Assembly: GCA_014904985.1 (NCBI GenBank)
Contig: MU129118.1
Span: forward strand, 37,507-101,506
Source of the DNA: Hydnum rufescens UP504
Lineage: Eukaryota; Basidiomycota; Agaricomycetes; Cantharellales; Hydnaceae
DNA: 64,000 nucleotides
Direction of reading: 5' to 3'
Positions 2,632-61,130 of this stretch are shown here, in pieces; position 1 is the first letter of the stretch; each line of letters begins with the position of its first letter. Position numbers and translations under genes: made by a program. Below the pieces are notes generated by a model. That model had not been told where the DNA came from, ran no database searches, and saw nothing but the letters and a program-made list of their open reading frames with translations.

Positions 2632-3715
2632 ATGGTGTGGTGCACACGGTGGGCATGCATCGTTGTTCGGGGCACAGGATGAGTTGCTGACAAGCATTGG
2701 ATGCAGGGCCATAGTCATACCACTCATTTCCATCGGTGCTGCCTTCAATCTCTATATTCTGTTCTCTATCCTTCATCTCTGGATCGGCCTCCAACGAGAT
2801 GCTGAGAGTGAATGGGAGGGTGGCGGTCACAACTTGATAAGGACATTTGTGCGTACTTGGACACTTTCCCGCGCCTTACAACTTGCTCAAAGCGCCTGCA
2901 GGCTGCCACCCTTATAACATATATCCTCCTGTCCTCTACGGCCTCCGCCATAGGCCTCTTCGGAGTGTACAAGGTGCAATAGCCGTCTCTTCTTCCTTAT
3001 CCCCCTCGATCTGACTCGATTCTGACAGCGGATACCATCATATATCCGGATCTTCCTCCAATTCGCATTTGCGGACTTCGCTCTCTACGTCGTCACCCTT
3101 ATCGGTGTCGCTTTTGCGTGCTATCACCCAACAAATTGGCGAGACACAGCGTGCGAGCTGTTATCCACGCAACCCGACGTCTTACGGACCCTCGCGCATG
3201 CCGGCCTCGATCTAGAGAATTGCGAACACTGGATCGAAAAGGTCGTCCTATGGGTTCTGATCTCACTAAGTGCTGGCCTCATCTTCAAGGTACGACTTGC
3301 ATTCCCTCCCTCTACAGTACTTGTCCGCATCGTACCTCAACAAGCCTCTCAATTTTCGCAGCTACAATTCCTGGTCGTCATCGCAGTCCACTACAGCTCT
3401 CTTTCACGAGCGGCAGGCCACTACACCCCCCTGCATTCTCCAATCCGCACGCCGACTCATCGGCCATCGCTCTCCACTTCTACCGCCCTCCGGCAAGGGC
3501 ACGGCCAGACCTCACCCCGTGACAGCAAGAGAGGGTCACAAGCATTTTCAGATCTGCCTCCATACAGTGACCGGGACTCTTCTCCAACAAGGGTATATTC
3601 ACCCGGAAGGTCCCCCGTAAGGAGCGCCAACGGTGATATAGATGGGAGGGATGCGTTGATCTCGATGTACGAGATGGACGAGCACAGGGGCGCCGATGCC
3701 AAGCGGAGGGTCTAA
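2632..3715 (+). CDS. Four-helix membrane protein, basidiomycete hypothetical
   Basis: Five exons (2632-2648, 2707-2848, 2902-2973, 3029-3289, 3362-3715) splice to exactly 282 codons including the stop, all with GT..AG introns of 53-72 bases. The 281-residue product begins MVWCTRAIVIPL. It has four hydrophobic stretches: AIVIPLISIGAAFNLYILF near the start, AATLITYILLSS, then FLQFAFADFALYVVTLIGV, and a long one containing VLWVLISLSAGLIF plus LQFLVVIAVHY. The C-terminal ~100 residues are Ser/Pro-rich and polar, probably a cytosolic tail. I do not recognise a characterised family. The architecture (four helices, disordered tail) is common among unnamed basidiomycete membrane proteins. The start is chosen because this ATG plus the 2649-2706 intron gives a complete in-frame model; the tiny first exon makes the N-terminus the weakest part. 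Confidence 0.65.
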
Positions 3716-5159
3716 ATACGCCTCGTTGACTCGGGTCCCCATTCTCTACTGGCAGGATAAAGCTGTAATACATTGCTCACGCCAGGCAGCGTCTGCTTGA
3801 CAATGATCTCCCCCCTTTCCCTGTACTCTTCTATATTGTCTCCATATCTAGCCCGCCAGTTTTAACGATTGTCTCAACATGCATTGTACATTTTTTCCCT
3901 CTCCTTGAGAAGAAATCGTGCCACCGTTCTTCTCCCGAATTACATTGGCTGGGTACTGTCGCACATTAATATTATCAGGAAACGGACGGATCCAATTTCC
4001 ATGCCAATTCCATTACATAATCGCTTCTCAATGAGGGCCGAAATTGAAGGCGGCTGTCTGTTAGACTACTGCACATACAGTAAGAGCCAGGCAGTGGCTT
4101 GAGAGAACGCCGCGTGGGAACCGCTGCCCAAATTCCGGTTCCAAAACCCTTGCACCCGCCGCAACATTAGTGATGGGGTTACTGTAAGCCAGCAATTCCA
4201 AGGTCCGTCGAAAGGGATCCGGTCTGGACGAGCGTCGTCGCGTCGGGGGGCTCTTAGCTCTAGCTCTAGGTAACGCTTTCAGAGCTTCTTCTGAAACAAC
4301 CCCCTCCACAACAGTGACCGCCACCAGTTATGTAGTTATGGAGTGGGGGAGAGTGGTGGGGGCATCTCTCTCCCCATACAACTGACAAACATTTCGACAT
4401 TTCGAAAGAAGTATCGGGGGGGGGGGAGGGGGGGAACTCCTCCAAAAGGCCCTATAATCCATCGTGTTTTGCTTTTATAGGGAGGGGGAGGAAAGCACGC
4501 ATGTAATTTTCCTTTTCTGGAGGTGCGGTGGCAGCTGCTCTGGGTCTCTGGCCCGCGCTCATCCAGTTTACTTTACTTGTAGAAAGCCCCTCGAGTTGTT
4601 TTTACAGTTACACCTCCCCCGCCCTTTCCTTGTCTATCGAGTTGGTGCGGTAAGTAAAACTGAGAGAATTTTCCAGACTTGGAATCCCCCTACCCCCACC
4701 CTACTGTTGCATTCCGATGACCTTCACGTCAAATTTTTCCCCCCTCCAAAAGACGTACAATAGGCACTCTTCCTTCCCTCAACCAACCCCGGACCCAACC
4801 TGGAGCCTTAACCAATCATCCATTCGCAGCGAAAACACGCATCCCTGATTTTTTTGGATTCCCCACTCCTCTCACCCTCAGATCACCCAAACAGGAAACA
4901 AACAAAACAAACAAACAAACAAAAACTCGCCCCTTCGCGAACATACGTCAAGACAAAAAAAAAACCACCGTACCAGCACTTTAAGTATTCCTCCTTCCCA
5001 AATGCGACCAGCCCCCAAGCCATTACCGTAATTGACCACCTCATTCAATGATCACAAAAACAACCTAGCTTGTGTGAATGGCAGCCGATCATGTCTTTCG
5101 CACCCCCTTGGACCAGGATTGGTATCTTTCACTCTATATATGGTCTGTATCTTTGAATA
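3716..5159. other. Intergenic, low-complexity stretches
   Basis: No gene is recognised. The stretch holds a poly-G run (about 4417-4436), long C/T-rich tracts (4590-4760), and an AAAC repeat (about 4900-4925). The pyrimidine-rich part may be promoter for a small downstream ORF, but nothing proves this. Confidence 0.4.
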
Positions 5160-39619: not shown

Positions 39620-41329
39620 TACAAAAGGTCTTTTAGGCCAATGCTTACATGTCTAATGTTAGATGTTGCCAGTTAGCAGTGATGTGAAGCTTTCATGACA
39701 CGTCTCATTTCAGAAAATGGGGTTGGCAACAGTCGGCGGTGCGGATTACCTCAGAAGTGGAATATAAAGACCTCGCAAGCTCGGTCAATGACTAAGACTG
39801 TGGCGGAGTGGGAGACAACGATAAATCCCGGGCGGGCGTTACGTACGTCGGGGCTAATGGAGTGGTTCTTGACCAAGTTGGATCTGTCCAGAGAATCTGG
39901 AAATCGTATTTGCAGTCTTACAGTTCGTGCATTTCTCCATTAGTTTGAGCTTTATTTTTTAATTTTTTTTTGGTGGATGTATCTTGCAATTGTCACTTTA
40001 CCGTAGAATTTCATTCTCATCTGTTATTATATATATAGATAGTCCCCTATAACTTCTCAATATTTTTGTAAAGTTGGTACCTCAGGCCTATTATGGCAAT
40101 TTCCTTGGTTCACAATTTCCTAAGTGATACTGAATGTGTTTTTTTTTGTGTTTATGACCCTAGGTCATCCACATGCGGGTCCAATTGCGGATTACCAATT
40201 TGAACCCTAGACAGAATGACGGATATCACTCATTTCGGCTCGCCCAGTAGTCAGGATGATAAGGCGCAACAAAGAACCAATGTTTTCCCGATCACTTGAT
40301 GTGTCCATGGTGGTTAGCAACCGGCGTGGTGATTTCTCGGGAGAGAGGCATGTAAATTGGTGTAAGATGACAGCACACTCGATCTTTATAATCGTACCGA
40401 GCGAAGATATCGGCCACTCTTTCCGACGGTCGTACGTACGTACCTGTGTAGTTGGATTTGACTACTGTTCCCGAGGGTGTTTCGGTAGCAATTCCTCCAA
40501 TTTCCTCCCTTGAATAGATTACAGCCGTTTGCAAAATTGTGGTCCGCGACTTGAACTTTGGATCCACACCGCCTCCTCTCGCAAAAATCAAGCCAAAAAT
40601 TGGGAGCATGATAACTCCTCAACAACACAACATAGTGAGTGGTCTGTTGCAATGTTCTCGCCTCGTCAATATCTAGGGCCCAATGTGGTTAGTGTTGGCA
40701 GAGCGCCCGCGCGATCAAACCCGAATTAGCTTCCGGCACGAGGCCAAACCGGGGTTTGCCTGCCTCTTTTCCCCAGTCCAGTCCACCCTCGCGTGCACCT
40801 GAGGCAATCAACTTTGGGTACCTAGTTAGGTAGGATATTCCCTATATGTACATCCTAAGTAGGTCCAATCTATCTGAGTTTACCTGAGTTGCTCTCAGTG
40901 TTGTGCTTGAGAAATCAGGCCCACTAGGACATATTTTTTGGCAGGGTCCCACTCAAAAATATTGGGGGTTCAGGGAGTAGTAGCCCCTGAGAAGCTCTAG
41001 GGTATTGAGGCCTGGGTAAGCCCAGAAATGGCCCAGGGAAGCCCCAGCCTGGCTTGGGTAAGCCCAAGTTAGGGCTGGGTAAGCTATCAAATCTTCTGGT
41101 CTTACTTTGACCTTCACTGTTAATTTGGTAGAGTCTGAATTAGGCTTGGGGTGGTGAAGCAGTCCCAGTGGGGGTTCTGGACTGGGCTTTGGTCCATTGT
41201 TGCCTTCAACAAGGTTGTGCATCAGTTCGGAGGTAGGGTCTGGGAACATTCTAGGATGGGTCTTTAGACGTGGGTCCATGGATCCGGGGTTTGCCATGAT
41301 GTTAGAAATAAGAGTAAAGTTCTGTGGTA
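39620..41329. other. Transition into CpG-depleted island, no gene supported
   Basis: CpG content is normal until about 40,800 and then falls sharply. A minus-strand frame at 41,297-40,953 (MANPGSMDPRLKTHP) is Pro/Lys-rich and may be a gag relic, but has no clear family. An open frame at 40,609-40,292 minus is likewise unassigned. Confidence 0.35.
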
Positions 41330-41345
41330 AGGTCCAACCCGGTCA

Positions 41346-41420
41346 GCCACAAATGTACATCTAGTTAGATACAATGAGCCTTGCGTTTAAATAGTCTAAC
41401 TAGATGTTTTTAGGCGGGGG
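41346..41420 (+). repeat. Left terminal inverted repeat of array 1
   Basis: The sequence GGTCAGCCAC.., then TCTAGTTAGATA, ATGAGCCTTGCGTTTA and CTAACTAGA is repeated in inverse orientation at 45,690-45,775. The TCTAGTTAGA / TCTAACTAGA pair is itself a small stem, so the end can fold on its own. Confidence 0.7.
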
Positions 41421-43298
41421 CCCCTGGGGCCTCCGGGGGTGATTTCAGACCCTCGGACAAGGGCCCCAGGGGCCCCTGGCTCTGAACTTGGAAAATGATC
41501 AGGGAAAAGTCATGGTCTTTTATGGTCTCACTTAGAGAATCTCAGACTTGCAGGACAGCAGGCCATACAGGCATATCAGGGATTCCATTTATAATTATTT
41601 ATTTATTATCACTATATTATACATATACCACCCAGGGTTTCATTCTGTGGTCCCATCATTAACTTGTATTCAAGAATTCAAACACCGGGTTGGGCAGGTG
41701 TGGTACTGTCCATACAAATCAAAAAGAAAAAAAGCACTACTTAGCACCACACACCCACCCTAGTGGGTGTGTGGTACCGTCCATAGAAATTAATTTTTTT
41801 TAAAAGAAACACTATATAGTAGCACCACACACCCACTAAGGCGGGTGTGTGGTACCTTCCCTTGCTTCATCGGGAGTTCGGCCAGTTTTTGATAACCTAG
41901 AATAAATTTAAAAAAAAATAGGTCCTTGGGAGGGGGGGTTCACCCGGCTCATTGTTAGCCATTTGGACAGGCGTGGCTGGGCGATTCACTGTTGTGTGGG
42001 GTCACGGCTGTCTGTTGTCGTTGTTTCGGGAGCTTCAAATTCAATCCTAGAATGGAATGATAACATACATTAGTAAAAAAATTCAAAGTGATGCCAAAGG
42101 GGCAGCTTGCGCTGCTCCTTTTGCATCACTGTAGATGTAGAAAGTTTAAAAAAAAATACCTTGCAGTACCACACACCCGCATTGGCGGGTGTGTGGTACT
42201 CGTTTTTGCCCGGGGTCACGTACCTTTGACTGCCGGTTTTCTGTACAGTTCTCAGCTGGGTTGGGGGGTTTTCAGGCACGTACTCATTGGGGGGAAGGAA
42301 GATCTAGAATACAAAATTTAGATCAGTAAAAGTTAAAGCAACGCAAAAAGAGCAGCCTTCGCTGCTCTTTTTGTGCCATTGGGGGTGCATTACATTGCAT
42401 ACCTTGTATAGAACCACACACCTGCTACTGTGGGTGTGTGGTTCATCTATTCGTTTGGCGTGTTGTCGTTCATGGGGATGGTGTCGTTCTGGGGGGGCTT
42501 GCTTCACGGGTCTTCACTTGTGGCAATACCTAGAATAAAAAATCATGAGTTTAAAAATTAACAGCGACACAAAAAGAGCAGCTTTCACTGCTCTTTTTGT
42601 GTCGTTGGGGGTACATTACATACTGAGTATAGAACCACACACCCGCAGTAGTGGGTGTGTGGTTCTCTTTGTGTGGCCTGTCGTCGTTTGCGGGGGTATT
42701 GTCGTTCTGGGGGGGCTTGCTTCGCGGGTCTTCATTTGTGGCAATACCTAGAATAAAATCATTAGTTTAAAAATCAACAGCGACGCAAAAAGAGCAGCTT
42801 TCGCTGCTCTTTTTGCGTCGTCGGGGGTACATACATACCGAGTATAGAACCACACACCCGCAGTAGCGGGTGTGTGGTTCTCTTCGTGTGGTCCGTCGTC
42901 ATTTGTGGGGTGTTGTTGTTCCGGGGGGGCTTGCTCGCGGGTCTTCATTTCTGGCGATAGCTAGAATTAATATTAGTTAAAAAAATTAAAAGTGATGCAA
43001 AAAGAGCGGCTTTCGCTGCTCTTTTTGCGCCGTTGGGGGTGCATTACATGCCTCGTATAGAACCACACACCCGCAGTAGCGGGTGTGTGGTTCAGTTCTT
43101 CATGTGGGGCATCGCCGTTCGCGGGTCTCCTTTGGGGGCGTGTTATCGTTGTAGGGGGGCTTGCTTTATGGGTCCTCATTTCTGGCAATACCTAGAATGA
43201 AAGATTATTAGTTAAAAAATTTAAAGCGACGCAAAAAGAGCAGCTTTCACTGCTCTTTTTGTGCTGTTGGGTACATGAGAATTACATACCTTGGATAG

Positions 43299-43330
43299 AA
43301 CCAGACACCCACCAGGTCGGGTGTCTGGTT
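43299..43330. repeat. Exon hairpin with compensatory change
   Basis: The array-1 exon hairpin normally reads ACCACACACCC..GGGTGTGTGGT. Here the left arm reads ACCAGACACCC and the right arm GGGTGTCTGGT, so both sides of one base pair changed together. Confidence 0.9.
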
Positions 43331-43717
43331 CGCATCGGTTTCTCGTTCGGTTTTGGTGGTGTGTTTGTCGGGTCTTCGTTTGGCATGGCTTCAATTGGCT
43401 CGTGCGGACGTTGGTTCATATCGTGACCTAGAATATTAAAACATACATTAGTGAGAAACTCGAAGCAGCACAAAAAGAGCAGCTTTCACTGCTCTTTTTG
43501 CGCTACTGTATTTATTGGGAAAAGCAACTTACCTTAAATATTACCACACACCCGCCGCAGCGGGTGTGTGGTTTCAGGGGCCACTCATTGGGTGGTCTGT
43601 GGTTTATTTTTGTTTGGTTCTTGCTGTCTGGGCCCTTGTAATGTCGTGGGTTCTTGTCTTGGGCCTTGGACCATGATCTGAAATAATAAAAGTATGTTAG
43701 TATATAGATTCAAAGCA

Positions 43718-43752
43718 GCGCAAAAAGAGTAGCTTCGCTACTCTTTTTGCGC
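43718..43752. repeat. Intron hairpin with compensatory change
   Basis: The usual AGAGCAGC..GCTGCTCT stem is AGAGTAGC..GCTACTCT in this unit. Pairing is kept although both arms differ from the other copies. Confidence 0.9.
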
Positions 43753-43873
43753 CGTTGTACTTACTAGAACGGAAACTCACCTTGTGACCACACACCCGCA
43801 GCAGCGGGTGTGTGGTTGTGGGTTGTGTCGTCATGTTGTTGCCTTGTGCTGGGTGTGAGGCGTAGTTGCGAAA

Positions 43874-44343
43874 TTCAATGCCAGCAATTGCCAATACTCA
43901 AGAAGCGCCCAAGTGCTGGCACTACAGGCACAGTACACATCAATAGCAAGCATGTAGATATATAATAAATACTATATAATAAATATTTGTCCAAAAAAAA
44001 AAGGGAAAATGACAATGATAATGGGTCAGAGCCCAATAAGGCACGATATGGCTAATTGCAAGTGGATTAGGCCACATCTATGCATCAGAATTGCCCCAAA
44101 TTTAAATATATTTAAATTTGGGGCAATTCTGATGCATAGATGTGGCCCAATCCACTTGCAATTAGCCATATCATGCCTTATTGGGCTCTGACCCATTATC
44201 ATTGTCATTTTCCCTTTTTTTTTTGGACAAATATTTATTATATAGTATTTATTATATATCTACATGCTTGCTATTGATGTGTACTGTGCCTGTAGCGCCA
44301 GCACTTGGGCGCTTCTTAAGTATCGGCAATTGCCGGTGTTGAG
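43874..44343. repeat. Central palindrome of array 1
   Basis: Inverted repeat with arms of about 234 bases mirrored around 44,108/44,109, near-perfect in the inner ~200 bases. The centre is AT-rich (AAATTTAAATATATTTAAATTT split around the axis), and each arm carries TATA-like runs (TATATAATAAATAC) upstream of the first exon-like stretch on its side. Placement suggests a bidirectional promoter; this is inference. Confidence 0.9.
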
Positions 44344-44609
44344 TCTGCATCGCTCTTCCATCTCCGCAACCACAACAAACCACCTGGAAAGGCAACCACG
44401 CGACCACACACCCGCTGCTGCAGGTGTGTGGTCACAAGGTGAGTTTTTTTATTAGTAGATACAATGGCACAAAAAGAGCAGCGAAAGCTGCTCTTTTTGC
44501 GCTGCTTTCGAATTTCTTACTAACATGCTTTTAATTATTCTAGCTGGGCCCTCGTCCAATGCACGATGATAGCCCACGGAACAACCAGAGCCCAAACACC
44601 AATGCGACA

Positions 44610-44790
44610 CAGCAACGCGACACGCCAACACAACACGAGACGCCAGCGCAACATGCCAACGTGACACAGCAATGCAATGTGCCAACGCAACACACGTGCC
44701 AATGCAACACGATGCGCCAACGCAACACGGCACGCCAACACAACACAGCACACCAACGCAACACGACACGCCAACACGCCAAGGACGGGG
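44610..44790 (+). repeat. CAACACGACACGCCAA-type minisatellite inside an exon unit
   Basis: Imperfect ~15-base repeats based on AACGCAACAC/CACGCCAAC fill one exon-like stretch of the right half of array 1. The stretch stays open as a Gln/Asn/Thr-rich frame (44,559-44,933). Confidence 0.7.
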
Positions 44791-45689
44791 CATGCGACGC
44801 CACGCCAAATGAGGACACAACCATGTCAAATGAGGATGCAGCCGCAACGCCAACCGAGGACGCAACCACGCCCAATCCGGGTCCCAGAAATCACACACCT
44901 GCCACGGCAGGTGTGTGGTCCCATATAAGTTGAGTCCCCACACCCTAGTAGCTACAACCACGCAAAGAGAGCAGTGAAAGCTGCTCTTTTTGCGTGGTTT
45001 TTAATTTCTAACTAACTTAAAAGTTCGTCCCGTAGGTCTCAACATCCCTGGCAAACGAATACCAAGGCAAAACCCCCGCCCCCCTTTTCGATGCCTGAAC
45101 GACAGGCACCTGCACGAACCCCCGTACAAACCCCCGTACGTATGAGTGAGAGTACACGGCCCCAGTACCCCACACTGCTGTGGCGGGTGTGGGGTACTAC
45201 AAGGTATTTTTTATTTCTTATTTTTATTCCTTATTCTTGTGGCGCAAAAAGAGCAGCATAAGCTGCTCTTTTTGCGCTGCATTCATGTTCAACTAATTCA
45301 TTAATTAGTTCTCTAGATATTGGACCAGAGCCCACATGAACCCCCAACCACAGACCCGCAGAACGACACGCCGCGAATGAAAACTGTGAACGAAACCGCG
45401 AAGGCCCGCACAAATGAAAACCGTGAGCAACACCCCTTGAGGGATCACCCAAATGGAACCCAGGCTCCGACTGGTGTGAATTCCAGGTATGTATTTTATC
45501 TTTAGCTACACTTGCACAAGAAGAGCAGCCTCTGGCTGCTCTTCTTGGGAGGGTGAGCCCCACTGGGCGAGCCTATGGATGTATATACTAATATAATACT
45601 AATAATAATAATAATAAATATATAAATTAATAATCCATAATCTGGCAGGGGCCCCTGGGCTGCTTGGGGGCCCCTGGGGGCCCCCTGGT

Positions 45690-45775
45690 AAAAAGATCTA
45701 GTTAGATATAATAAACGCAAGGCTCATTATATCTAATATGATGCGGAAAAGTGGCTGACCAGCCTGGTAAGGTCA
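45690..45775 (-). repeat. Right terminal inverted repeat of array 1
   Basis: Reverse-complement partner of 41,346-41,420, sharing the ATGAGCCTTGCGTTTA core and the flanking TCTAGTTAGATA stem. A further hairpin (ACAGTGTACTG..CAGTACACTGT) follows just outside near 45,791-45,816. Confidence 0.7.
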
Positions 45776-45790
45776 TGTAGTGCGAGGATC

Positions 45791-46383
45791 ACAGTGTACT
45801 GTTCCAGTACACTGTGGACAGCAGCCAAGTGGGTGGAAAAAAGATACATTTCCAGATCTTCCCACGGCTAGCTATTCAAGTCTACTTATGTAAACAGATA
45901 CAAATCTAACTAAAGCCAGGGCAGCACCAAAATCCTGTGGAGAAGCTTTCCACTGGAGTGTTTGAGAAGAAAGAGAAAAGGGAAAGTAAAGGAAGGGGAA
46001 TACATTGGTACATTGTAAGGTAGGCGACATACATAAGTCATCACTTCCAGAAGCAAACCATTTCAAAATAAGTGCACATCTCCCAGAGTTGCCACAACCA
46101 CTTTTGTGTTATTTGGCCACCTAGGACATGTAGATAGGATGTATTTCTACAACTTCTTGGTCTCAGAATGTCCATATATAGCAGGAATCAGAAGTTATAA
46201 TGCAAATGGTTTGTAATGTTGGAGATCAACTTCTTTATGCTTCCCAATTGTGACAATGCAGTTGAGCTAATTTAGGTTTGGATAATTTTGCACTCTGGAG
46301 TGGGCCGAATGTATTGATTATATAATATGCTTTCCTAATTTGGAAAGCCCGGCTCACATTGCCCTAGCCCCCCCTGCCTGTCT
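45791..46383. other. CpG-poor spacer
   Basis: No gene seen. A segment at about 46,018-46,050 (GGTAGGCGACATACATAAGT) recurs in inverse orientation at about 53,960-53,995, just beyond array 2, so both arrays are flanked by related sequence. Confidence 0.45.
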
Positions 46384-49489: not shown

Positions 49490-50605
49490 CCTAGGAGCCC
49501 ATGCACACAACACATTGTGTGCATGGGCTCATTCACTCGCCCCTCAATCTTGATTTTGTGCTGGTACTTGACTAGTACTGGCTGTCCGGGTTTTGGCCAT
49601 TTGTGAGGGTTGAGATCCGAGATGGCAGCATCGTTGTCATTACTTTTTTGAGGCACAGGAGGGGGGCTGGGCAGGGAAACAGCCTGTAATGAATTGTATC
49701 AGTCAGTAGAACATTCAAGTAGTGTGAAAGAGCAGCTCCAAGCTGCCCTTTCACACAATAAACACTAGATTAATATACTTACCTGATCACCACACCCCAT
49801 ATTGCTGGGGTGTGCTGGCACAGGTCTCGGGTGGGGTCGTAGGACCCAGGGTCATTGACAAGTGATGAAACCATCACTGTGATCATCGCTGAGTGAGCTG
49901 GGGGGTGTACAGCCGCAGGTGCAGCCAATGACAAAGTCCCTATTGTAAGATGGATTGAGTTATCAGTAAAAAAATAAAGATGTGCAAAATGGGCAGCCTA
50001 TAGCTGCCCATTTCACAAAGGTATGTGCCGACTTATCTTACAACCACACCCAAGCAATGCTGGGGTGTGGTGTACTACACTGTGCTCTGTTTGGTCTCAC
50101 TCTTTGATATTTCTGGTTACATGGGGCTATAAGACCTGTTCTCCACATTGTAATGTTGGTTGAAGTGTGAGGAAGTGGGGTCGTGAGACCTGTGATCTGG
50201 ATCATTGTCAGTGTCAGGTGAGGTGTGGGAAGACATAAGGTGGGGGGGGGAAGAATGATAGATCCTATAGATCATGTCATTAGTAAGAATTAAAGTGACA
50301 CAAGAGAGGCAGCTTAATGCTGCCCCTCTTGTAAAGGACTAGCAAAAGATAAATGTACCTATTACCACACCCCAGCATTGCAATGCTGGGGTGTGGTGTA
50401 CTCCTTAGTCAGTTCAGGTGCTGGATTCTTTGCTGGGGTGCAGGATCACAAAGTTCTGCAATTATTGACAATGATGACGATTATGTCATTCTTGGCATCG
50501 TTGGCATCGTTCGAGGGCGTGGGCGACAGCAATAGTATCTACAAGTGAAAACTAATATAGCATTAGTAAAAAAATCAAATCAGTGCCAAGGAGGGGCTTA
50601 AAGCC

Positions 50606-52180
50606 ACTCCTTTCGCACAAAGACATATGTATGATAGCACTTACCTTGTCACCACACCCCAGTGCTTCTGGGGTGTGGTGTATCCTCATTCAGCTTGGAG
50701 GTTCACATACTGTTCATCAGGGGAAGCTGAGCACAGCCAGCATCAGGCAAGGCCAACACTCAACACTGGCACATGCCAGGTTCCAAAAGTGCTCAATGAA
50801 ACACACCATGAGGGACTGTGGGAGTGTATATATGAGTGAAAATGTACACTATATAATGTTTTAAAGTGGCTGGACCAATAAAATTTAATAATAAGAGAAG
50901 AATGAGCAAGTTCTAAATAAGGGGATATCTTTATGGCATTGCCCAGGGAATTGACAGGCTTGCACACATAGGACTCATCCCAAAATTAAATATTTTGGTT
51001 AAATAGATGTATACTACATGGGTGATGCTTACAAGGGATGTCCAACCACATTGATATTTCCTAAGCCTGCATTTCCTATTTAGGGCATAGACATTGAATC
51101 ACAGTGTGACTTGGTTCTTGGAGCAATTCCTAACTTAAATAACACCACACATTGTCTTTAACAAATTTTGCACCTCCACAAGTTCTCAGGTAGGTCCCAA
51201 GATGCCCAAGAGTGTAATTTCCTTATTTGGGTATGTGTATGTCCTCATTTTTTCAGTCATATCACACTATTGGAGTCTAATAATTTGGGGTTGGGACTTG
51301 ATGCAGTATGCCCACAGAAGTATATTTTTTTCATAATTTTTAATGCAAATGATGTGTCATGGGTTTGGCATATCTGGAGTAGCTCTGATTCCAGGAATCA
51401 GAGCTACTCCAGATATGCCAAACCCATGACACATCATTTGCATTAAAAATTATGAAAAAAATATACTTCTGTGGGCATACTGCATCAAGTCCCAACCCCA
51501 AATTATTAGACTCCAATAGTGTGATATGACTGAAAAAATGAGGACATACACATACCCAAATAAGGAAATTACACTCTTGGGCATCTTGGGACCTACCTGA
51601 GAACTTGTGGAGGTGCAAAATTTGTTAAAGACAATGTGTGGTGTTATTTAAGTTAGGAATTGCTCCAAGAACCAAGTCACACTGTGATTCAATGTCTATG
51701 CCCTAAATAGGAAATGCAGGCTTAGGAAATATCAATGTGGTTGGACATCCCTTGTAAGCATCACCCATGTAGTATACATCTATTTAACCAAAATATTTAA
51801 TTTTGGGATGAGTCCTATGTGTGCAAGCCTGTCAATTCCCTGGGCAATGCCATAAAGATATCCCCTTATTTAGAACTTGCTCATTCTTCTCTTATTATTA
51901 AATTTTATTGGTCCAGCCACTTTAAAACATTATATAGTGTACATTTTCACTCATATATACACTCCCACAGTCCCTCATGGTGTGTTTCATTGAGCACTTT
52001 TGGAACCTGGCATGTGCCAGTGTTGAGTGTTGGCCTTGCCTGATGCTGGCTGTGCTCAGCTTCCCCTGATGAACAGTATGTGAACCTCCAAGCTGAATGA
52101 GGATACACCACACCCCAGAAGCACTGGGGTGTGGTGACAAGGTAAGTGCTATCATACATATGTCTTTGTGCGAAAGGAGT
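50606..52180. repeat. Perfect or near-perfect 1.57 kb palindrome at the centre of array 2
   Basis: Arms of 787 bases mirror around base 51,393. Open frames on the two arms translate almost identically (for example 50,627-50,839 plus and 51,947-52,159 minus). Both arms contain a TATA-like CACTATATAATG and the first exon-like stretch with its hairpin and donor ACAAG|GTAAGT. Confidence 0.95.
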
Positions 52181-52181
52181 G

Positions 52182-52811
52182 TGTCAGGGCCACACTGCAA
52201 TGAGAGCACCAAACAAATATAAACACAGATAATTCTGACTAAGTCTGGTGTAAGTCCAGCTAAGTCCAGGAGAATCCGGGCAAGAATGAGATAATGAGGA
52301 TAGGAGGGGATGGAGAGGCAGTCCAGCAGCCCGGAAGGGACTAGGTGGAAATGAGCACAGCGGTCCTTAAGCTCAAGGAGTCAACCGGAAAGTACTCAGA
52401 CTGTAGTCCGGAGTAGAAGCAGAAATCCTGAGATTAACATTAAGGGAATAGGTACAGTGGGGCTAACCTGTAGTCTGGAGTAGAAGCGGAAATCCTGAGA
52501 GACCAAAGCTGAGTCTCTGGATGTCACCCCGGACTACTTATACATAGTTCCTATACTACAGGGGATTGATTGCTTAATGAGAGGTGGTTACAGGGGGGCA
52601 GGCACAAGAGGGGGAGCAGGCAGGGGACAGGAAAGTGGGGGGAACAGGGACAGGGCCAGGGGTAAGTGTGTGGGAACCGGAAGTAAAGGAAATGAGAAAA
52701 TGAAGGGGAAATGAAATGGAGGTGGGGACAAATCGGAAACAGGCCAGAACAAAACCGGAAACAAACCGGAAACAAAACTGGAATGAACCAGGAAACGGAC
52801 GAACTCTGACA
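52182..52811. mobile_element. Solo LTR in array 2, with 5-bp target duplication
   Basis: A 630-base block begins TGTCAGGGCC and ends CTCTGACA, flanked on both sides by GAGTG (52,177-52,181 and 52,812-52,816). It splits an intron hairpin of array 2 whose intact mirror copy lies at 50,583-50,617. Inside is a TATA-like TTATACATAG near 52,540. TG..CA ends and a 5-bp duplication indicate a solo LTR of a retrotransposon. Confidence 0.88.
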
Positions 52812-53760
52812 GAGTGGCTTTAAGCCCCTCCTTTGGCACTGGTTTGATTTTTTTACTAATGATATATTAGTTTTCACTTGTAGATACTATCACTGTCGCC
52901 CATGCCCTCGAACAATGCCAATGATGCCAACAATGACATAATCATCATCATTGTCAATAATTGTGGAACTTTGCAATCCCTGTGCCCCAGTGAAGAATCC
53001 AGCACCTGAACTGACTAAGGAGTACACCACACCCCAGTGATGCTGGGGTGTGGTGATGAGGTAAGTTTATCTTTGGCTAGTCCTGGACAAGAGGGGCAGC
53101 ATTAAGCTGCCCCTCTTGTGTTGCTTTAATCCTTACTAATGAGATGATTTATTTTCACTATAGGCTCTATCATTCTTCCCCACCCACCCTTCCTCTTCCT
53201 GCACCTGACCGACACCGACAATGACCCTGATCACGGGTCTTACAACCCTGTCTCCTCACACCCCAACCGAAGCTGTGACATTGATTTCCAGTCTAACCAG
53301 GAAAACCAAAGACCAAGACTGAAAGGAGCACAGTGTAGTACACCACACCCCAGCATTGCTGGGGTGTGGTGATAAGGTATGTTTATTTCTTCTCAAGCTG
53401 GCCCTCTTAAGTTGCCTTAATTCTAACTCTATTTTCACCATAGGGTCTATTGCTCTCGCCCTCCCACCTCACCTCTTCCCACCCCACCTGCTATTGACAA
53501 TGATGGGGATCATGGGTCTTGTGGCCCCCCCTCCCTGCACTTGAACCAGGGTCGATCACGCCAGGCATGAATGTCAATCATGGGTCTTATGACCCCTCCC
53601 TGTCAATCATCGATGACGATGCAGATCACAATGGGTCTTATGATCCTACATGAGCAGAAAAACTGAAGATTGAGACTAAACAGTGCACTGTGCTGTACAC
53701 CACACCCCAGCATCTGCTGTGGATTGGATGGCTGAGAAGCTGCATGGGCCATGAGAAAAT

Positions 53761-54219: not shown

Positions 54220-55900
54220 GTTCCGCTCATTCATGGGGATGGAGTCGGTCTGGCCTAGGGGGAAAGGTCCCCAGTTGAATGACAGGGGCCTCTTGCCAAG
54301 AGCCATCTGCAGTGTTTACAAAGGGTATGCTGCCCACTATTTGGGGCTGGGGTGGTAAAAGTGTCTGGGGCATTGAGTAGGAAGTCATCGGATTGGGCCC
54401 AGTCAAGTAATACTGATCTAGGGTTTGCAACAGGGAGTTTTGACGATCTTCAATCTCTTCATATGAAGATTCCTGTGGACAAGTTTGACGTTCCGGTGAG
54501 CATGGTCATCTGGACATGCTGGACCAGTGTGAGACTCCCTCATGCTGATGTGGAGTTTCTTCATCAGGTCACCAGTGTCTGTCACTCTCCAGTATTCCTG
54601 GGATATGGTTGGACCCTGTACGAGGGTCTCTTTGGCAACCCCTTGATGCTGTTCAGGAGGCGTAATTGGTGTAGACTGGGGTGGGTTCAGAATATCTGAC
54701 TGTGGATGGGGCTGGTAATGTGGGCAGGTTATCCCACCACTTGTCCAGATCCATGTCACTCCTCAAGGCATTTTCAGAGGGTTCTGTAGTAGGGTTTTCA
54801 TCTTCCCAAGTTGACAAGGACATGGGTATGTTGAACAACAAGACAATAGGTTCTGTAGCATTCCCCTCCAGTAGTGGTCTGGTATTCACAGTTTGTCATT
54901 CTGCGGCCATCATGAAGGTGCCATCTGGCCGGTAGTATACTGTGGAGTACAGATGCTTTGTAGCATTGTCCAGGACATCAAAGTTGTCCAGACATGGCAG
55001 TGGCCCTGGGAATATGTCTTCCCATTTGTAGGCTTCACAGTTATCCATCCCTGGGAATGGCGGAGCCTCTCCTTTGAAGGAGTTGCATAGGGTGAGTGGT
55101 TCCCATAGTCAGGCTTCATTAGTTGCAAAGTAGCTGTCTTGTACCAGTACCAGTTGGGATTCCAGTAGGGCTTCTGTCGTATGGATGGTACAGCTGGAGT
55201 CAATGAATGCACATAGTCTATATGCATGTAACTGCTTCCAGAGCAAGGTACTTGTGGTCTTGTTTGCAGATTTAGTCCAGATGAAACCAACAGGGGCACT
55301 CAGAAGCCATGGTATGGCAGGCATGTCTTCAGATCATTTGTACGGAGAATGAGAGCTAATGAATAACCAGTGCGCAATGACATAGTTGGAGTATGCCAAA
55401 AGTACTGTGATTACTTGTGTGATTTGGAGGTAACAGGCATGGAGAGAATTGCTACAATACCAGGGTTTAAACAGGTTTTTGAATCATGGGCAATCAGGTG
55501 CATTGATATGATAATGGATATCTCTGATATAGGTAGGGATCAGGAGGCTGGAGGCCTGCTTGTTTTCCTCTGCCTGGCCCCAGGTGTAGTCCCACAATGA
55601 TCGAAGGGCATCCAAACATTCCTTTCTGATGACAGCTTGCTTGTTTTCATCTCATGTTTCACAGATCAGTTGTAGGAAGGTTGGTACGAATGCTGCCAGT
55701 AGGCTAAGTGGTTGCACAGAGGTAATCAGTTCAAATGAGGGCTGTTGTCCCAAGATATCCAATATTCCCATATGCCCTGACCAGGTGAGGTGTGCAATCA
55801 GTGGCATAAGAACATGGTGGTAAGTCTTGTGGAAGGTGTAGCTGTATTGTGCCTCTCCCACATAATGGGCTGGGCTATGGTCTTGGAAATCTGTACAGGA
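54220..55900 (-). other. Sequence downstream of the chromodomain
   Basis: Coding-like minus-strand frames continue for 1.7 kb after the chromodomain (for example LPVLFMVIAGFKNATPFPNP, TSTLLWKQLHAYRLCAFIDS, LDQYYLTGPNPMTSYSM). They do not resemble pol. This may be an extra ORF of the element or a separate decayed gene. Confidence 0.4.
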
Positions 55901-55989
55901 CTTCATGTTGGGGTTAGGGAATGGTGTGGCATTCTTGAACCCAGCTATCACCATGAACAGGACAGGTAGGACTCCAGGGTCTGGGATAA

Positions 55990-56190
55990 TGTTAGTGGCT
56001 GTGTGATCCTTGAACTCTTTCACTACCTCTGGAGCATTATGTAGGTCATGATTGGATTGCCATGAGTTGTGTTTGGGTCCATATCCATGCCAACGAATCT
56101 GGTACTCCACAGCACATTTTTTCTTGTTGTACCGTGAATCTATAATCCTCTCTACTTCATATTCTTCTGAAGTCTTTAAGCCATCCTGGG
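55990..56190 (-). pseudogene. Chromodomain at the integrase C-terminus
   Basis: EEYEVERIIDSRYNKKKCAV, EYQIRWHGYG and the following W and DLHNAPEVVKEF match a chromodomain. In chromoviruses this targets integration to modified chromatin. It follows an integrase GPY/F-like segment (CRIGPFKVTKVLSPSTYQLR). Confidence 0.88.
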
Positions 56191-56399
56191 GATTCGTCAA
56201 CGTGGGATGGTACTTATCTTGGGACTGGTGGTATAGGGTGAGGTGCTCCAGGTTGACCACATTATGCATAGGCATCGAATCCAGTAGTCTCAACTGGTAA
56301 GTACTAGGGCTAAGGACCTTGGTAACCTTGAATGGACCAATTCTACATTGCATGAGTTTACAGCCTGTTCCTTTAATGTCCATGAGTTCCAGGGAATGT

Positions 56400-57300
56400 G
56401 GGTTTAAAAGTACCTCATCCCCTACTTTGTAAAGAACAGCCCTTCTTTTCTTGTTGTACTGGTATGCTTGCGAGTTGGCAGCCTGAATGATGGTGTCATG
56501 GGCCAAGTCCTGTCATACTCAAAGGGCACCTATATGCTGGTCTGCTAATGGGCTATTGGTGAACATTGACCCTGTTGACTCTTGCAATAGACATAGTGGC
56601 ATCCAGGGCATATACCCCAATAACAGTATGGTGGGTGACATTTGTGTGGCCAAATGGGTGGCCCTGTTATAGGCAGATGCTAGTATGTCCAACCAGTTGG
56701 CCCAATCAGTATGGTCAGCATTTATGTAACACTGTATCATGGTCTCCAGGTGCTGGTTCATTACTTCAGTCTGGCCATCAGTTTGAGGGTGGTGTGAGGT
56801 GGACATGGCTAGTCAAGTGTCAAAGTAACTTGCTAGGGAGCACCAGAAGTTACTTATGAAACATGGATCATGATTGCTCATGATTTGGGTTGGCAGTCCA
56901 AAATGTTTGTACACCTCTCTATGTAGCAGGGCAGCCACCTTGTCTGTGGTTACGTGGGTAGTAGTAGGAATAAAAATACCGTATTTCATGAATTTGTCCA
57001 CAATGACCAGTATTGCATCATGCCCCTTAGATTTAGGTAGTCCTGTAACGAAGTCCATACTGATGACCTCGAATGGCAGTTTGGGTATGTTGAGTGGCCT
57101 CAGATACCCTTTGGGCCCCAGTTGGTCATGTTTAGTCTTCTGACAAATGTCACAGGTTTCACAGTAATGTAGGACATCCCTTCACATGGTTTTCCAGTAG
57201 AATCCTTGCTGGAGTACTTCCAAGGTCTTCCCCCACCAACCATGAGCAGACTTGTGGGGGGCATCATGGGCTTCTTTGACAAGGGTAAGTTGTTCCTTCA
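56400..57300 (-). pseudogene. Integrase of the retrotransposon
   Basis: A zinc-binding HHCC-type region (AHDAPHKSAHGWWGKTLEV, YCETCDICQKTK) precedes the catalytic core: SMDFVTGLPKSKGHDAILVI, LPTQIMSNHDPCFISNFW, STSHHPQTDGQTEVMNQHLE. The D, D, E catalytic residues appear present, but TGA codons break the frame after YFDT and near 56,515. Confidence 0.9.
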
Positions 57301-57879
57301 CAGGTACACATAACCTGGAATGGCCATCTGCATCCTTGAAAAGTAGGAGTCCATTGTTGCTCTTGGTGAACTGACAGAATCATTTGAGTTTGACCTTTTG
57401 TCCTCGAGCAGTCTGGGGTTTAGCATCGTCCTCCATTCTGGTCCAGATCATCTTGAATTCCAGGTCATTAACATATCCTTCATGGAAGCGTCTGATCGTT
57501 TCTAGGGATATGGACAAGTTCAATCCTGGTGAGGGCCTGTCCAAACCTCGGGTCATGATGACTGGCTCCAGGGCTTTGGTGGTGTGGACCCCTGGTGGGA
57601 TGTTCATGGAGGAGGACTCATTCCACATGGTCATTTGGGACCATGTTAGTATGAACATGGCCTTTCCCAAACTGGGCAGTCTGTTAGAGAGGCCTAGGTT
57701 ACTGGATTGGTCAGCCTCACTCATGATCAATTTGGGGAAATCGGGGTCCTTGGGCGACACTACTTCAGGGGTCAGTGGCAATTGGGATAGAGGGTCCACA
57801 TTGGAGTGGATATGACCCAGTCAATGTACTATGATCATTCTGGGGAAGGCTGCAAACACAGTTCCCCATGCACTAAGAC

Positions 57880-58489
57880 GATGGTTGGCATTCTCATAGG
57901 TCTTCGCCCATTGTAGTGCCACATGATCAGTTATGAGGAGAATTTGTTCTCCTTCTATGAAAGGTAGGAATCAAATCAGGCTGTCCTTGGCTGCTAAGGC
58001 CTCCCATTCTGTAGTGGAGTACTGGGTTTCGGCAGGTTTGCAAGTATGGCTCCAGTAGGCAATGACTCTTTCCATGTGGACAGTAGTTTCCTCAAATGAA
58101 CTTGCCCAAGAACCTAATGTGGGGTGATCATTGTGGACCTCAGAGAGTTTGATGGTCAATTCAGGTACTGGATTCCCCTCGTCGTATGCTTTATGGAGAT
58201 GCTTGTAAGTTTTGGTGTCACATAGGTTCTGTATTAGTATGGGCTGGATCTGCTGCGAGGCTCTGGCGAGGGCCACATCAGAAGCATCAGTGTACAGTCG
58301 GTAACCCTGGCCCCGGATGGGGTGGCCCCATATGGGTGCTGATGTCAATGCTAGTTTCATCATTCTGTAGGCCTCCTCATGCTCATCCTTCCAGCTCTGG
58401 GGTGAGGCCTTCTGGAGTAGTACAAATAAAGGCGCAGCAATTCCAGACAAACAGGGTATGTATGTGGCAAAGCAGACAGCCATTCCCAG
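57880..58489 (-). pseudogene. RNase H-like domain of the retrotransposon
   Basis: Shows FLGMAVCFATYIPCLSGIAA, APIWGHPIRGQGYRLYTDAS and YSTTEWEALAAKDSLI, the usual connection and RNase H motifs in Ty3/Gypsy elements. It continues from the reverse transcriptase and carries TGA stops. Confidence 0.8.
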
Positions 58490-59260
58490 AAAGGTCTCTA
58501 GGTCCTTACGGTGGCAAGGGTAGCTAAAGTGGTAACTGCTTGTATTTTTTCCGCATTGGTGGACAGTCCTAATTGTGACACTTTTTGTCCTAGAAGCTGT
58601 ATACTGTGGTACCCTACATGACATTTGTGTGGTGCCAACATAATACCAGATTTCTTGATGGCTTCGAGGACCATACTAATGTGGTTGAGGTGTTTGTTGA
58701 AAGTCCCTGAGTAAACCACAATGTTGTTGATGTATACTAGTGTGAATATCCACAAGTAAGGGGCCAAGATTTCTTGCATTACTTGTTGGAATATAGGAGG
58801 ACCATTTCTCCATCCAAAAGGCATCCTAGTGAACTGGTGTAGTCCATGGTGCGTCCTCATGGCAGTGTATGGCTGGGAAATATCATTGAATTCCAGTTGA
58901 GTGAATCTGGCTAGGGTGTTGAAAGAAGACAGGTATTGTGCCCCTGAAAGGGCTTGGAGGATGTCGCTCTGTCATGGTATAGGGAATTGGTCAGGCATGG
59001 TGGCTGCGTTCAGTTTTCTCCAGTCAATGCAAAGCCAGTCCTTGCCATTCTTGTGCATGATTAGCACAGGGGCTCCCCAGGGACTGTTCAATGGTTTGAT
59101 CACTCCTTGTTTTAACCACAGATCTAACTGTTTGTCGATGAGGTCCCTTTTAGCTGGTGAGGCAATGTATGGAGCGGCCAAGATAGGCTTAGTACTGGGC
59201 ATTAATTCGATGTGTACCTTGGTAGGGTGTTTGCCTAGTCATACATCAAACCCAAAAGCC
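58490..59260 (-). pseudogene. Reverse transcriptase domain, inactive
   Basis: Recognised by LIDKQLDLWLKQGVIKPLNS, SPWGAPVLIMHKNGKDW, CIDWRKLN, FTRMPFGWRNGPPIFQQVM and YINNIVVYSG. The catalytic YxDD motif reads YINN, so both catalytic aspartates of that motif are lost. At least one TGA (near 58,974) interrupts the domain. Confidence 0.9.
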
Positions 59261-59510: not shown

Positions 59511-60059
59511 AATGAACAGGGCTTTTTGTTTGAACTGGTCCCTATCTTCTGGCTCAAATCCAGGCTGGTCAGCCATATGACTTTACCTCAAAAGGAGTAC
59601 CATTTTGACAAATTTTCATGGCCAGAGAGGGTGAAATTGGGGTTGATGTCAAATGATGATCAAAAACTGAATTTTGACCTCAGATTGATGGGTTTGACAT
59701 CAAATTTGACATCAACCATTGTCAACAGCCTGAAGATGAAGGACTTCTCAAATATTCAGTACAACCCCATGGCTGTGCATTATGCGCAACTAAGGGTGAC
59801 AGCTCAGTAGCTTCGCTCAATCAGATGAAAGAGATCACATAGTGCATTGAGTACCACATCAAAATACAGGTGGGTGGACCAGGTATAGTTCAATGGGGGG
59901 CATGCACAGTAGATTCACCATGAATATACTAGTACATAGGGAAGGAATGATGGAAGAATTTGAAAGAGTGGCAGAAAGGGGCACAGGTTGGGATGGTAAG
60001 AGGAATCAAACAAGCCTAATAATGCTTGAAACAGCAAATATTTGAGCATCCCTGGTGGT
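59511..60059. other. CpG-poor spacer, no gene supported
   Basis: One 100-codon plus frame (59,508-59,810) lies here but includes direct repeats of GATGTCAAAT and is probably chance. Nothing else is recognised. Confidence 0.4.
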
Positions 60060-61130
60060 GGTGAGGGAAGGTGAGGGGATGATGAGGAACAGTGTGGCCA
60101 GAAGTTCTCAGAATACACTGGAAGTAGGTGTGTTGAAAAGCTGTGTTTGGGCACACGAATGCCACCACACACAGCCTGAGCCAACAACACCTAGCCCCAG
60201 GGGGGCACATGAACCAAAATGGAAGATTGAGGATAGCACAGTGGAAAGTAGTTGGTTTGTCACAATAAATAGCTAATGGATTCAGACAAATGAGACAATT
60301 GATTGACCCAAGAACGTCAAATGGCCACGTTTGCCCCCCCAGGTGATGTTGAGTGGGAGATGAGGGGAAGATTAGGAACTGTGAGGCAGAAGTTCTCAGA
60401 ATACACTGGAAGTAGGTGTGTTGAAAAGCTGTTGTTGGGTGCACAGAATGCACCCACACACAGCCTGAGCAACAACACCTAGCCCCCAGGGGGGCACATG
60501 AACCAAAAATGGAAGATTGAGGATAGTGCAGTGGAAAGTGGTTGGTTCGTCGCATAAATATGCTTGATGGATTCGGATAAATGAGATAAATTGATTAACC
60601 CCAAGAACGTCAAAATTGGCCATGATTTGACCCCCCAGGTGATGTTGAGTGGGAGATGAGGGGAAGATGAGGAACTGTGAGGCCAGATGTTCTCAGAATA
60701 CACTGGAAGTAGGTGTGTTGAAAAGCTGTGATTTGGACGCACAGAATGCACCTACACACAGCCTGAGCAACAACACCCAGCCCCAGGGGGGCACATGAAC
60801 CCAAAATGGAAGATTGAGGATAGCACAGTGGAAGTGGTCAGTTCATCGCATAAATATGCTCAACTGATTCAGACGAATGAGATGAATAAATGGAGCCCAA
60901 GAGTGCTGAAATTGGCCATCATTTGATCCCCCCAGGCAATGTTGAGTGGGAGATGAGGGGAAGATGAGGAACTGTGAGGCCAGAAGTTCTCAGAAAACAC
61001 TGAAAGTAGGTGTGTTGAAAGGCTGTGATTTGGGCACACAGAATGCACCCACACACAGCCTGAGCAATAGCCCCCAGGAGGAGCATATGAACCCAAACAG
61101 GAAGATTGAGGATAGTGATGTGACATGAAT
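60060..61130. repeat. ~297 bp tandem repeat, about 3.6 copies
   Basis: The block GATGAGGAACTGTGAGGCCA followed by GTTCTCAGAATACACTGG recurs at about 60,078, 60,372, 60,669 and 60,967, a period of 293-298 bases. Each unit also has GGCACATGAAC and CAGCCTGAGCAA. Minus-strand frames in the repeat (FQHTYFQCILRTS) recur as a result and are not evidence of a gene. Confidence 0.92.

What the first reader, a model, noticed from the sequence alone, without database searches (positions are those of the whole stretch)
41330..45790. Array 1: divergent tandem units in which every exon ends in a hairpin and every intron contains another
Seen directly: alternating hairpins of two families, with splice-like signals (donor right after the exon hairpin, CTAAC/CTAAT branch and TAG acceptor after the intron hairpin) in fixed order. 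The order is on the minus strand left of 44,108 and on the plus strand right of it. Inference: the block is a pair of divergent transcripts of many small exons produced by unit duplication, inside an element with inverted ends. I know of no named fungal element with this design. Exons are 122-138 bases and not all multiples of three, so a non-coding product is possible.
Basis: partly seen in the sequence, partly recalled or inferred. Interest (0 to 1): 0.88.

Follow-up and report, generated by a model that had tools for sequence, protein, structure and literature searches.

The report
Jumping element of spliced RNA hairpins
This stretch of a mushroom-class fungus genome is a mobile DNA element that seems to carry two outward-facing, protein-free RNA genes built from repeated exon and intron units, each with its own hairpin, and these hairpins recur thousands of times in that genome.

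Summary
Window 41335-45766 is a 4,432-bp insertion with terminal inverted repeats and an 8-bp target duplication (GTAAGGTC); 26 places elsewhere in the genome match the joined flanks without interruption (empty sites). Inside, a central inverted repeat (axis ~44108) separates two outward-reading arrays of units: exon linker, exon hairpin (E), splice donor, intron hairpin (I), branch site, acceptor. In 19 copies, 113 of 158 adjacent E-I pairs carry donor, branch and acceptor on the outward strand, against about 5 in shuffles. Branch and acceptor are conserved better than their surroundings; stems change in a compensatory way. Exon lengths and indels show no codon signal, and no protein homolog was found. 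The exact I core occurs 3,319 times in the genome, the E core 1,537 times. A second array in the window (49.7-53.4 kb) has almost no DNA similarity to the first but the same design. Best reading: a non-autonomous TIR transposon family whose cargo is a pair of divergent, spliced, non-coding RNA genes. Transcription and splicing are inferred, not seen; the transposase was not found; the function is open.

The parts
41335..45766 (.). whole mobile element, 4,432 bp
   Evidence: TIRs plus exact TSD; 26 uninterrupted matches to the joined flanks
41327..41334 (+). left target-site duplication GTAAGGTC
45767..45774 (+). right target-site duplication GTAAGGTC
41335..41434 (+). left terminal inverted repeat (CAACCCGGTCAGCCAC...)
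   Evidence: 79% match to the right end over ~95 bp; 40 matches among 40 scored places
45666..45766 (-). right terminal inverted repeat (CAGGCTGGTCAGCCAC...)
43875..44342 (.). central inverted repeat (arms 43875-44104 and 44113-44342, 96.5% alike); presumed bidirectional promoter and first exons
   Evidence: promoter role inferred
43678..43780 (-). left-arm predicted intron 1 (GTGAGT...CAG)
43428..43532 (-). left-arm predicted intron 2 (GTAAGT...TAG)
43192..43289 (-). left-arm predicted intron 3 (GTATGT...TAG)
42961..43051 (-). left-arm predicted intron 4 (GCATGT...TAG)
42748..42838 (-). left-arm predicted intron 5 (GTATGT...TAG)
42530..42623 (-). left-arm predicted intron 6 (GTATGT...TAG; branch CTCAT)
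42304..42402 (-). left-arm predicted intron 7 (GTATGC...TAG)
42047..42159 (-). left-arm predicted intron 8 (GTATTT...TAG)
44439..44543 (+). right-arm predicted intron 1 (GTGAGT...TAG)
44930..45035 (+). right-arm predicted intron 2 (donor reads TTGAGT; TAG)
45204..45316 (+). right-arm predicted intron 3 (GTATTT...TAG)
42780..42821 (-). example I (intron) hairpin, 19 pairs, GAAA loop on the minus strand
   Evidence: fold of its intron z = -7.6
42846..42881 (-). example E (exon) hairpin, 16 pairs, ending seven bases before the donor
   Evidence: fold of its exon z = -6.2
44612..44775 (+). 18-bp minisatellite inside right-arm exon 2
50605..52181 (.). second array in the same window: near-perfect central palindrome (99.9% over 1,577 bp)
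49684..50644 (-). second array, left arm: four E-donor-I-branch-acceptor units (third donor reads GATAAG)
53061..53443 (+). second array, right arm: two predicted introns, 103 nt with I hairpin and 67 nt where the hairpin is degenerate

Best explanation
A large family of non-autonomous, TIR-bounded DNA transposons whose cargo is a pair of divergent, multi-intron, non-coding RNA genes. Shown: it is an insertion with TIRs and 8-bp TSDs; its hairpin cores occur thousands of times; the arrays read outward from a central inverted repeat; fungal-type splice signals sit in fixed order around two hairpin families and are conserved above background; the stems covary; no coding signal. Inferred: the central inverted repeat is a bidirectional promoter; each transcript is spliced at its units; the I hairpin folds out about 40 nt so that a ~103-nt intron behaves like a ~63-nt one and splices efficiently; the mature RNA is a string of hairpins (mostly 13-16 pairs) separated by weakly structured linkers. 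Most likely benefit to the element (inference, weakest step): many well-spliced introns keep the RNA stable and out of nuclear decay or splicing-coupled RNAi, so the locus stays transcribed and accessible to a transposase supplied by an unidentified partner.
For: Exact 8-bp TSDs in 7 of the 13 loci with a convergent TIR pair, of 26 loci examined (one of the seven, L018's pair, encloses the array-free sister element); 26 empty sites. 158 I hairpins in 17 loci: donor+acceptor outward 133, inward 13. 158 E-I pairs in 19 loci: donor 128 (null 44), branch+acceptor 141 (null 19), both 113 (null 5); donors GTGAGT 39, GTAAGT 24, GTATGT 20; branch CTAAC 69, CTAAT 67 of 148. Identity between copies: acceptor AG .943, branch .910, I hairpin .852, donor GT .828, donor positions 3-6 .792, other intron .720, exon linker .704. 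Double changes in stems 1,389 vs 262 expected if independent (E) and 2,736 vs 499 (I), about 90% Watson-Crick. I loops GNRA outward 37, inward 2, of 76 tetraloops; E loops UNCG 15 vs 1, of 117. Exon mod 3 15/15/16. Effective intron 63 nt, median; an array-2 intron with a degenerate hairpin is 67 nt. A second array with almost no sequence similarity repeats the design. Introns raise RNA levels cumulatively in another basidiomycete (PMC3744415, abstract).
Against: No transcript evidence. Mismatched stem pairs are not clearly biased to G.U over A.C on the transcript strand: I 114 vs 84, E 36 vs 50. Pairwise counts are not independent. 30 of 158 pairs have no donor match and 45 of 158 lack the full set. 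Central arms are kept alike within each element, which points to a DNA-level process at least there. A sister element with the same TIRs has no array, so the array is not needed for transposition. No autonomous partner found.
Confidence: 0.6

Rival explanations
1. The hairpins are DNA-level palindromes (cruciform or protein sites, kept alike by template switching or gene conversion, as in foldback elements); the splice motifs are relics of an ancestral gene.
For: Central arms: median identity .981 within an element against .885 between copies, within higher in 21 of 21 loci; array 2's palindrome is 99.9% perfect; no clear G.U over A.C bias, and at I outer pairs 4-5 A.C is at least as common as G.U (20 and 17 vs 12 and 12); same-TIR sister elements also match themselves in inverted orientation.
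Against: Branch and acceptor are conserved well above neighbouring intron bases; loops are strand-oriented GNRA/UNCG, whereas inversion by template switching would give both orientations; I outer pairs 6-7 have few A.C pairs (3 and 4 vs 10.8 and 8.1 shuffled) while G.U stays common (29 and 30).
Confidence: 0.2
2. The arrays are small-RNA sources or decoys: hairpins or spliceosome-stalled introns feed Dicer/RNAi, either as the host's silencing trigger or to saturate it.
For: Abundant hairpins; in Cryptococcus inefficiently spliced transposon RNA enters SCANR and becomes a template for siRNA (PMC5851062, passage).
Against: Signals are near consensus rather than weak; stems of about 11-20 pairs are short for Dicer (general knowledge); no Rfam family reached its gathering score. 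Small RNA not testable here.
Confidence: 0.12
3. Ordinary protein-coding multi-exon genes with repeated exons, captured by a transposon.
For: The spliced right arm has a 230-codon open frame.
Against: Array-1 exon linkers are T-poor (11.6% T), so stops are rare by composition; exon mod 3 is uniform; linker gaps mod 3 (0/1/2) are 324/802/443; the left arm has 25-32 stops in each frame; 180 residues of the frame have no homolog.
Confidence: 0.04
4. The introns are introners that copied themselves into exons of one gene.
For: One hairpin core in thousands of copies.
Against: The unit that duplicates is exon+intron, and the mobile unit shown is the whole TIR element. Whether single I introns sit in host genes was not tested.
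Confidence: 0.04

Closest known systems
Non-autonomous TIR DNA transposons with 8-bp TSDs (hAT; Zisupton of KDZ)
   Same: TIRs, CA..TG ends, 8-bp TSD, high copy number; KDZ transposase domains abound in this genome. PMC12730594 (passages and section 3.2.1): hAT usually 8 bp, Zisupton 8 bp, Laccaria Kyakuja 7 bp with CA..TG ends and no TIRs.
   Different: No transposase found inside or as partner; cargo is arrays of splice-signalled hairpin units.
Foldback-type elements such as Galileo (P superfamily; PMC4168063, start of abstract in a listing only)
   Same: Inverted-repeat build with internal tandem repeats (Galileo detail recalled).
   Different: Repeats here are exon-intron units with conserved splice signals, running outward from a central inverted repeat.
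Introners (PMC9860276, one passage)
   Same: Non-autonomous elements, part of them with TIRs and TSDs, tied to introns.
   Different: Introners insert as introns into genes; here introns are internal parts of a larger mobile element.
Transposon introns recognised by SCANR in Cryptococcus (PMC5851062, passage)
   Same: Intron-bearing transposon transcripts in a basidiomycete.
   Different: Those introns are poorly spliced; these carry near-consensus signals.

Membership tests
Cut-and-paste TIR transposon | terminal inverted repeats and fixed-length TSD, with empty sites | tested here: met
hAT superfamily | 8-bp TSD | tested here: met
   7 of 13 loci with a convergent TIR pair have an exact 8-bp TSD; not unique to hAT
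hAT superfamily | hAT transposase within matching TIRs | tested here: inconclusive
   90 hAT-dimer matches; two near arrays were fetched: at C217 the match lies outside the element's expected end, at C71 it lies next to the array's centre with the left end not found
KDZ (Zisupton/Kyakuja) | 8-bp TSD (Zisupton) | tested here: met
   not unique to Zisupton
KDZ (Zisupton/Kyakuja) | KDZ transposase within matching TIRs | tested here: inconclusive
   154 KDZ matches, 150 of 584 candidates scored; the one fetched near a shared TIR (L035) seems to have inverted ends of its own; other hits compared by eye against truncated lists only
Introner | mobile unit is a single intron inserted into host genes | tested here: not met
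   mobile unit shown is the 4.4-kb element; host-gene introns not searched
Protein-coding gene | open frame kept across exons and copies | tested here: not met
SCANR-type poorly spliced transposon introns | weak splice signals and siRNA output | not testable with these tools
   signals look strong; no small-RNA data
Known structured RNA family | match above Rfam gathering score | tested here: not met
   window 41200-45900; 25 matches at E up to 1, each below its family's gathering score

The most novel reading that the evidence does not exclude
A new class of selfish element whose selected product is a spliced, beads-on-a-string non-coding RNA: transposon-borne divergent RNA genes that grow by adding exon-hairpin/intron-hairpin units, kept by selection on splicing and RNA structure across at least two families with almost no sequence similarity, and making up a noticeable share of one fungal genome.
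Probability: 0.4. Interest if true: 0.9.

Novelty: new variant of a known kind. Interest (0 to 1): 0.76.

Why it matters
If transcribed and spliced as the signals say, this is a transposon whose passenger is a family of multi-intron structured RNAs rather than a protein. It would make testable whether introns protect mobile elements from RNA surveillance, how an intron-borne hairpin helps splicing, and how tandem exon-intron units are born and kept, with thousands of natural variants in one genome.

Tried and rejected
Protein-coding reading: rejected. KDZ or hAT autonomous partner: searched by domain and by TIR and by fetching candidates; L035 has a KDZ gene and a shared TIR about 5 kb beyond what seem to be the KDZ element's own inverted ends (by eye); the C217 hAT fragment lies outside the element's expected end, and for the C71 one the element's left end was not found; no partner found. 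Rfam: nothing over gathering. Strand bias of stem mismatches as a test of RNA-level selection: not clear-cut (one search's version was biased by its scoring and is replaced); the outer-stem test favours RNA at I pairs 6-7, not at I pairs 4, 5 and 8, and is mixed for E (pair 3: G.U 19 vs 11.4 shuffled, A.C 17 vs 20; pair 4: A.C 24 vs 19.1, G.U 5 vs 3.6). Host species: not identified; the best of 188 matches of a neighbouring RasGEF gene are Agaricomycetes, none close. L036 (C2) is a copia-like stretch between two TIRs without matching TSD, not an array partner (copia by eye). Literature for such a design: eight searches listed none by title or abstract start; the library is open-access PMC only, and four of the listings were cut (20 of 542, 10 of 24, 8 of 43, 10 of 26).

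Rows dropped: one search used 17 of 21 loci (L017, L020, L026, L030 left out because nested or with several centres) and hairpins within 2.6 kb of the centre; searches used those 17 plus L038 and L039. L037 and L041-L042 entered only the TIR/TSD counts; L036, L035 and L040 entered no count. Searches kept only pairwise matches of at least 150 bases and at most 88% identity; one search kept 72-97%.
Full report
What is there. Window 41335-45766 is a mobile element of 4,432 bp. Its ends are inverted repeats (CAACCCGGTCAGCCAC... / CAGGCTGGTCAGCCAC..., 79% alike over ~95 bp) flanked by the 8-bp duplication GTAAGGTC. The joined flanks, with one copy of the duplication, match 26 other places without interruption (82-93%, from base 7 or earlier to the last base; two more span the joint in part; 40 of 78 candidates were scored), so the boundaries and the insertion are secure. 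Of 26 loci examined, 13 hold a convergent TIR pair and 7 of these have an exact 8-bp duplication: window, L013, L017, L018, L025, L038, L039; six do not (L021, L022, L026, L027, L029, L037), L029 sharing seven bases when shifted by one. L018's pair encloses an array-free sister element.

Internal build. A central inverted repeat (arms 43875-44104 and 44113-44342; in the window a stem of 183 pairs with 2 mismatches) divides two arrays that read outward. In 17 of 21 loci the main centre keeps a spacer of 187-192 bp between the arms; window, L011, L012 and L019 have 36 bp or less. Each unit is: exon linker, E hairpin (ACCACACACCC...GGGTGTGTGGT), donor usually 3-12 nt later, I hairpin (AAAAGAGCAGC...GCTGCTCTTTT), branch CTAAC/CTAAT, acceptor TAG. 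The left arm has eight such introns on the minus strand and the right arm three on the plus strand. Hairpin density is far above control.

Replication in copies. Twenty homologous loci were fetched first. In 17 single-centre loci (window included), 133 of 158 I hairpins have donor and acceptor signals in the outward direction and 13 of 158 in the inward direction. In 19 loci (two fetched later), 158 adjacent outward E-I pairs give a donor in 128 (44 expected from shuffles), branch plus acceptor in 141 (19 expected) and both in 113 (5 expected); median intron 104 nt; branch-to-AG distance 16-20 nt in 99 of 141. In pairwise alignments of copies at most 88% alike, identity is .943 at the acceptor AG.910 at the branch.852 in the I hairpin.828 at the donor GT.792 at donor positions 3-6.720 in the rest of the intron and .704 in exon linkers (pairs not independent). 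This is what selection for splicing predicts; random decay would level these classes.

RNA or DNA hairpins. Stem positions change together: 1,389 double changes against 262 expected in E and 2,736 against 499 in I, about nine in ten giving a Watson-Crick pair (pairwise, not independent). Loops are strand-oriented: GNRA 37 outward and 2 inward of 76 I tetraloops; UNCG 15 and 1 of 117 E tetraloops (loops are partly shared by descent). Against a pure RNA reading, mismatches are not clearly biased to G.U over A.C (I 114 vs 84, E 36 vs 50); decay of dead copies at CpG sites in the stem could explain this (inference). At I outer pairs 6 and 7 A.C pairs are scarcer than in shuffles while G.U stays common; at pairs 4, 5 and 8 and in E there is no such clear pattern. 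The central arms are far more alike within an element (median .981) than between copies (.885), in 21 of 21 loci, so a DNA-level homogenising process acts at least on the centre. I judge RNA-level selection on the unit hairpins likely but not proven.

Not coding. Internal exon lengths modulo three are 15/15/16 of 46; gaps in exon linkers fall 324/802/443 modulo 0/1/2; the left arm is closed in all frames and the right-arm frame of 230 codons is what T-poor exons allow; 180 residues of it have no homolog in a collection of 5.8 billion proteins at E 0.001.

How it may work. With the hairpin removed the introns are 63 nt (median), and in the second array an intron whose hairpin has degenerated is 67 nt; so the hairpin plausibly folds out and leaves an intron of short fungal size. 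The seven predicted exon and intron folds tested are more stable than shuffles (z -3.1 to -7.6), with largely open linkers. In Cryptococcus, another basidiomycete, introns raise RNA levels cumulatively (PMC3744415, abstract) and badly spliced transposon RNA is fed to RNAi (PMC5851062, passage). I therefore propose that many well-spliced introns keep the element's RNA stable and the locus unsilenced. Shown: mobility, order, conservation, covariation, lack of coding. Inferred: transcription, splicing, benefit.

Scale. The exact I core occurs at 3,319 places in the 63.2-Mb genome and the E core at 1,537; reversed controls 0. By the exact-match rate in 19 sampled loci (81 of 181 I, 68 of 219 E) this suggests some 430-780 arrays, a rough figure since the loci were chosen by similarity to the window. 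The two ends of a related TIR family (B) number 349 (up to 2 mismatches) and 322 (up to 1), controls 0. The same B ends also bound a palindromic sister element without an array (L018:5159-8030), so the array is cargo and not needed for transposition.

A second case. At 49.7-53.4 kb the window holds another array with a 1,577-bp palindrome at its centre (99.9%), E-like hairpins CACCACACCCCAGC...GCTGGGGTGTGGTG and I-like hairpins ACAAGAGGGGCAGC...GCTGCCCCTCTTGT, and the same order of donor, hairpin, branch and acceptor on both outward strands. DNA similarity to the first array is limited to two stretches of ~50 bp at E 0.001. Its E core occurs 120 times in the genome. Not all its signals are intact: one donor reads GATAAG, and its first right-arm intron is interrupted by an insertion. 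Its exon linkers do not look T-poor (by eye), so that trait is not part of the design. Its ends were not sought.

What it is filed under. It is a TIR DNA transposon (tested). Superfamily is open: 8-bp TSDs fit hAT and Zisupton among others (PMC12730594, passages), but no matching transposase was found. No paper with this design was listed in the searches made. The host is an agaricomycete without a close relative in the protein collection.

Noticed in passing
window 49684-53443: Second array, almost unrelated in sequence, with the same E-donor-I-branch-acceptor design around a 1,577-bp near-perfect palindrome; E core 120 copies in the genome.
   Followed up: partly
window ~52180-52830 (array 2, right arm, first intron): The I hairpin intact in the left arm is interrupted in the right arm by an insertion of roughly 640 bp (by eye) between donor and branch site.
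   Followed up: no
L018:5159-8030: Array-free palindromic element with the same TIRs as family B and TSD CACCAATG, lying between array hairpins at 4860 and 8215; 156 matches from 38 scored candidates in the genome.
   Followed up: partly
L025:36-6498: Array element inserted next to another array's intron hairpin, TSD TTACTGTT (nested insertion).
   Followed up: partly
L035:5763-9650: Three long ORFs without a Pfam match beside a family-B TIR; could be a captured or partner gene.
   Followed up: partly
G000 (own genome): KDZ transposase domain in at least 154 places, many with stops.
   Followed up: partly
window 60050-61115: 297-bp tandem repeat, 3.6 copies, near a lone TIR-like sequence at 59561.
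   Followed up: no
window 55655-58971 (-): LTR-retrotransposon remains (reverse transcriptase, RNase H, chromodomain), split over separate frames.
   Followed up: no
own genome, 26 places: The element sits in another dispersed repeat whose uninterrupted copies are 82-93% alike to the flanks.
   Followed up: no
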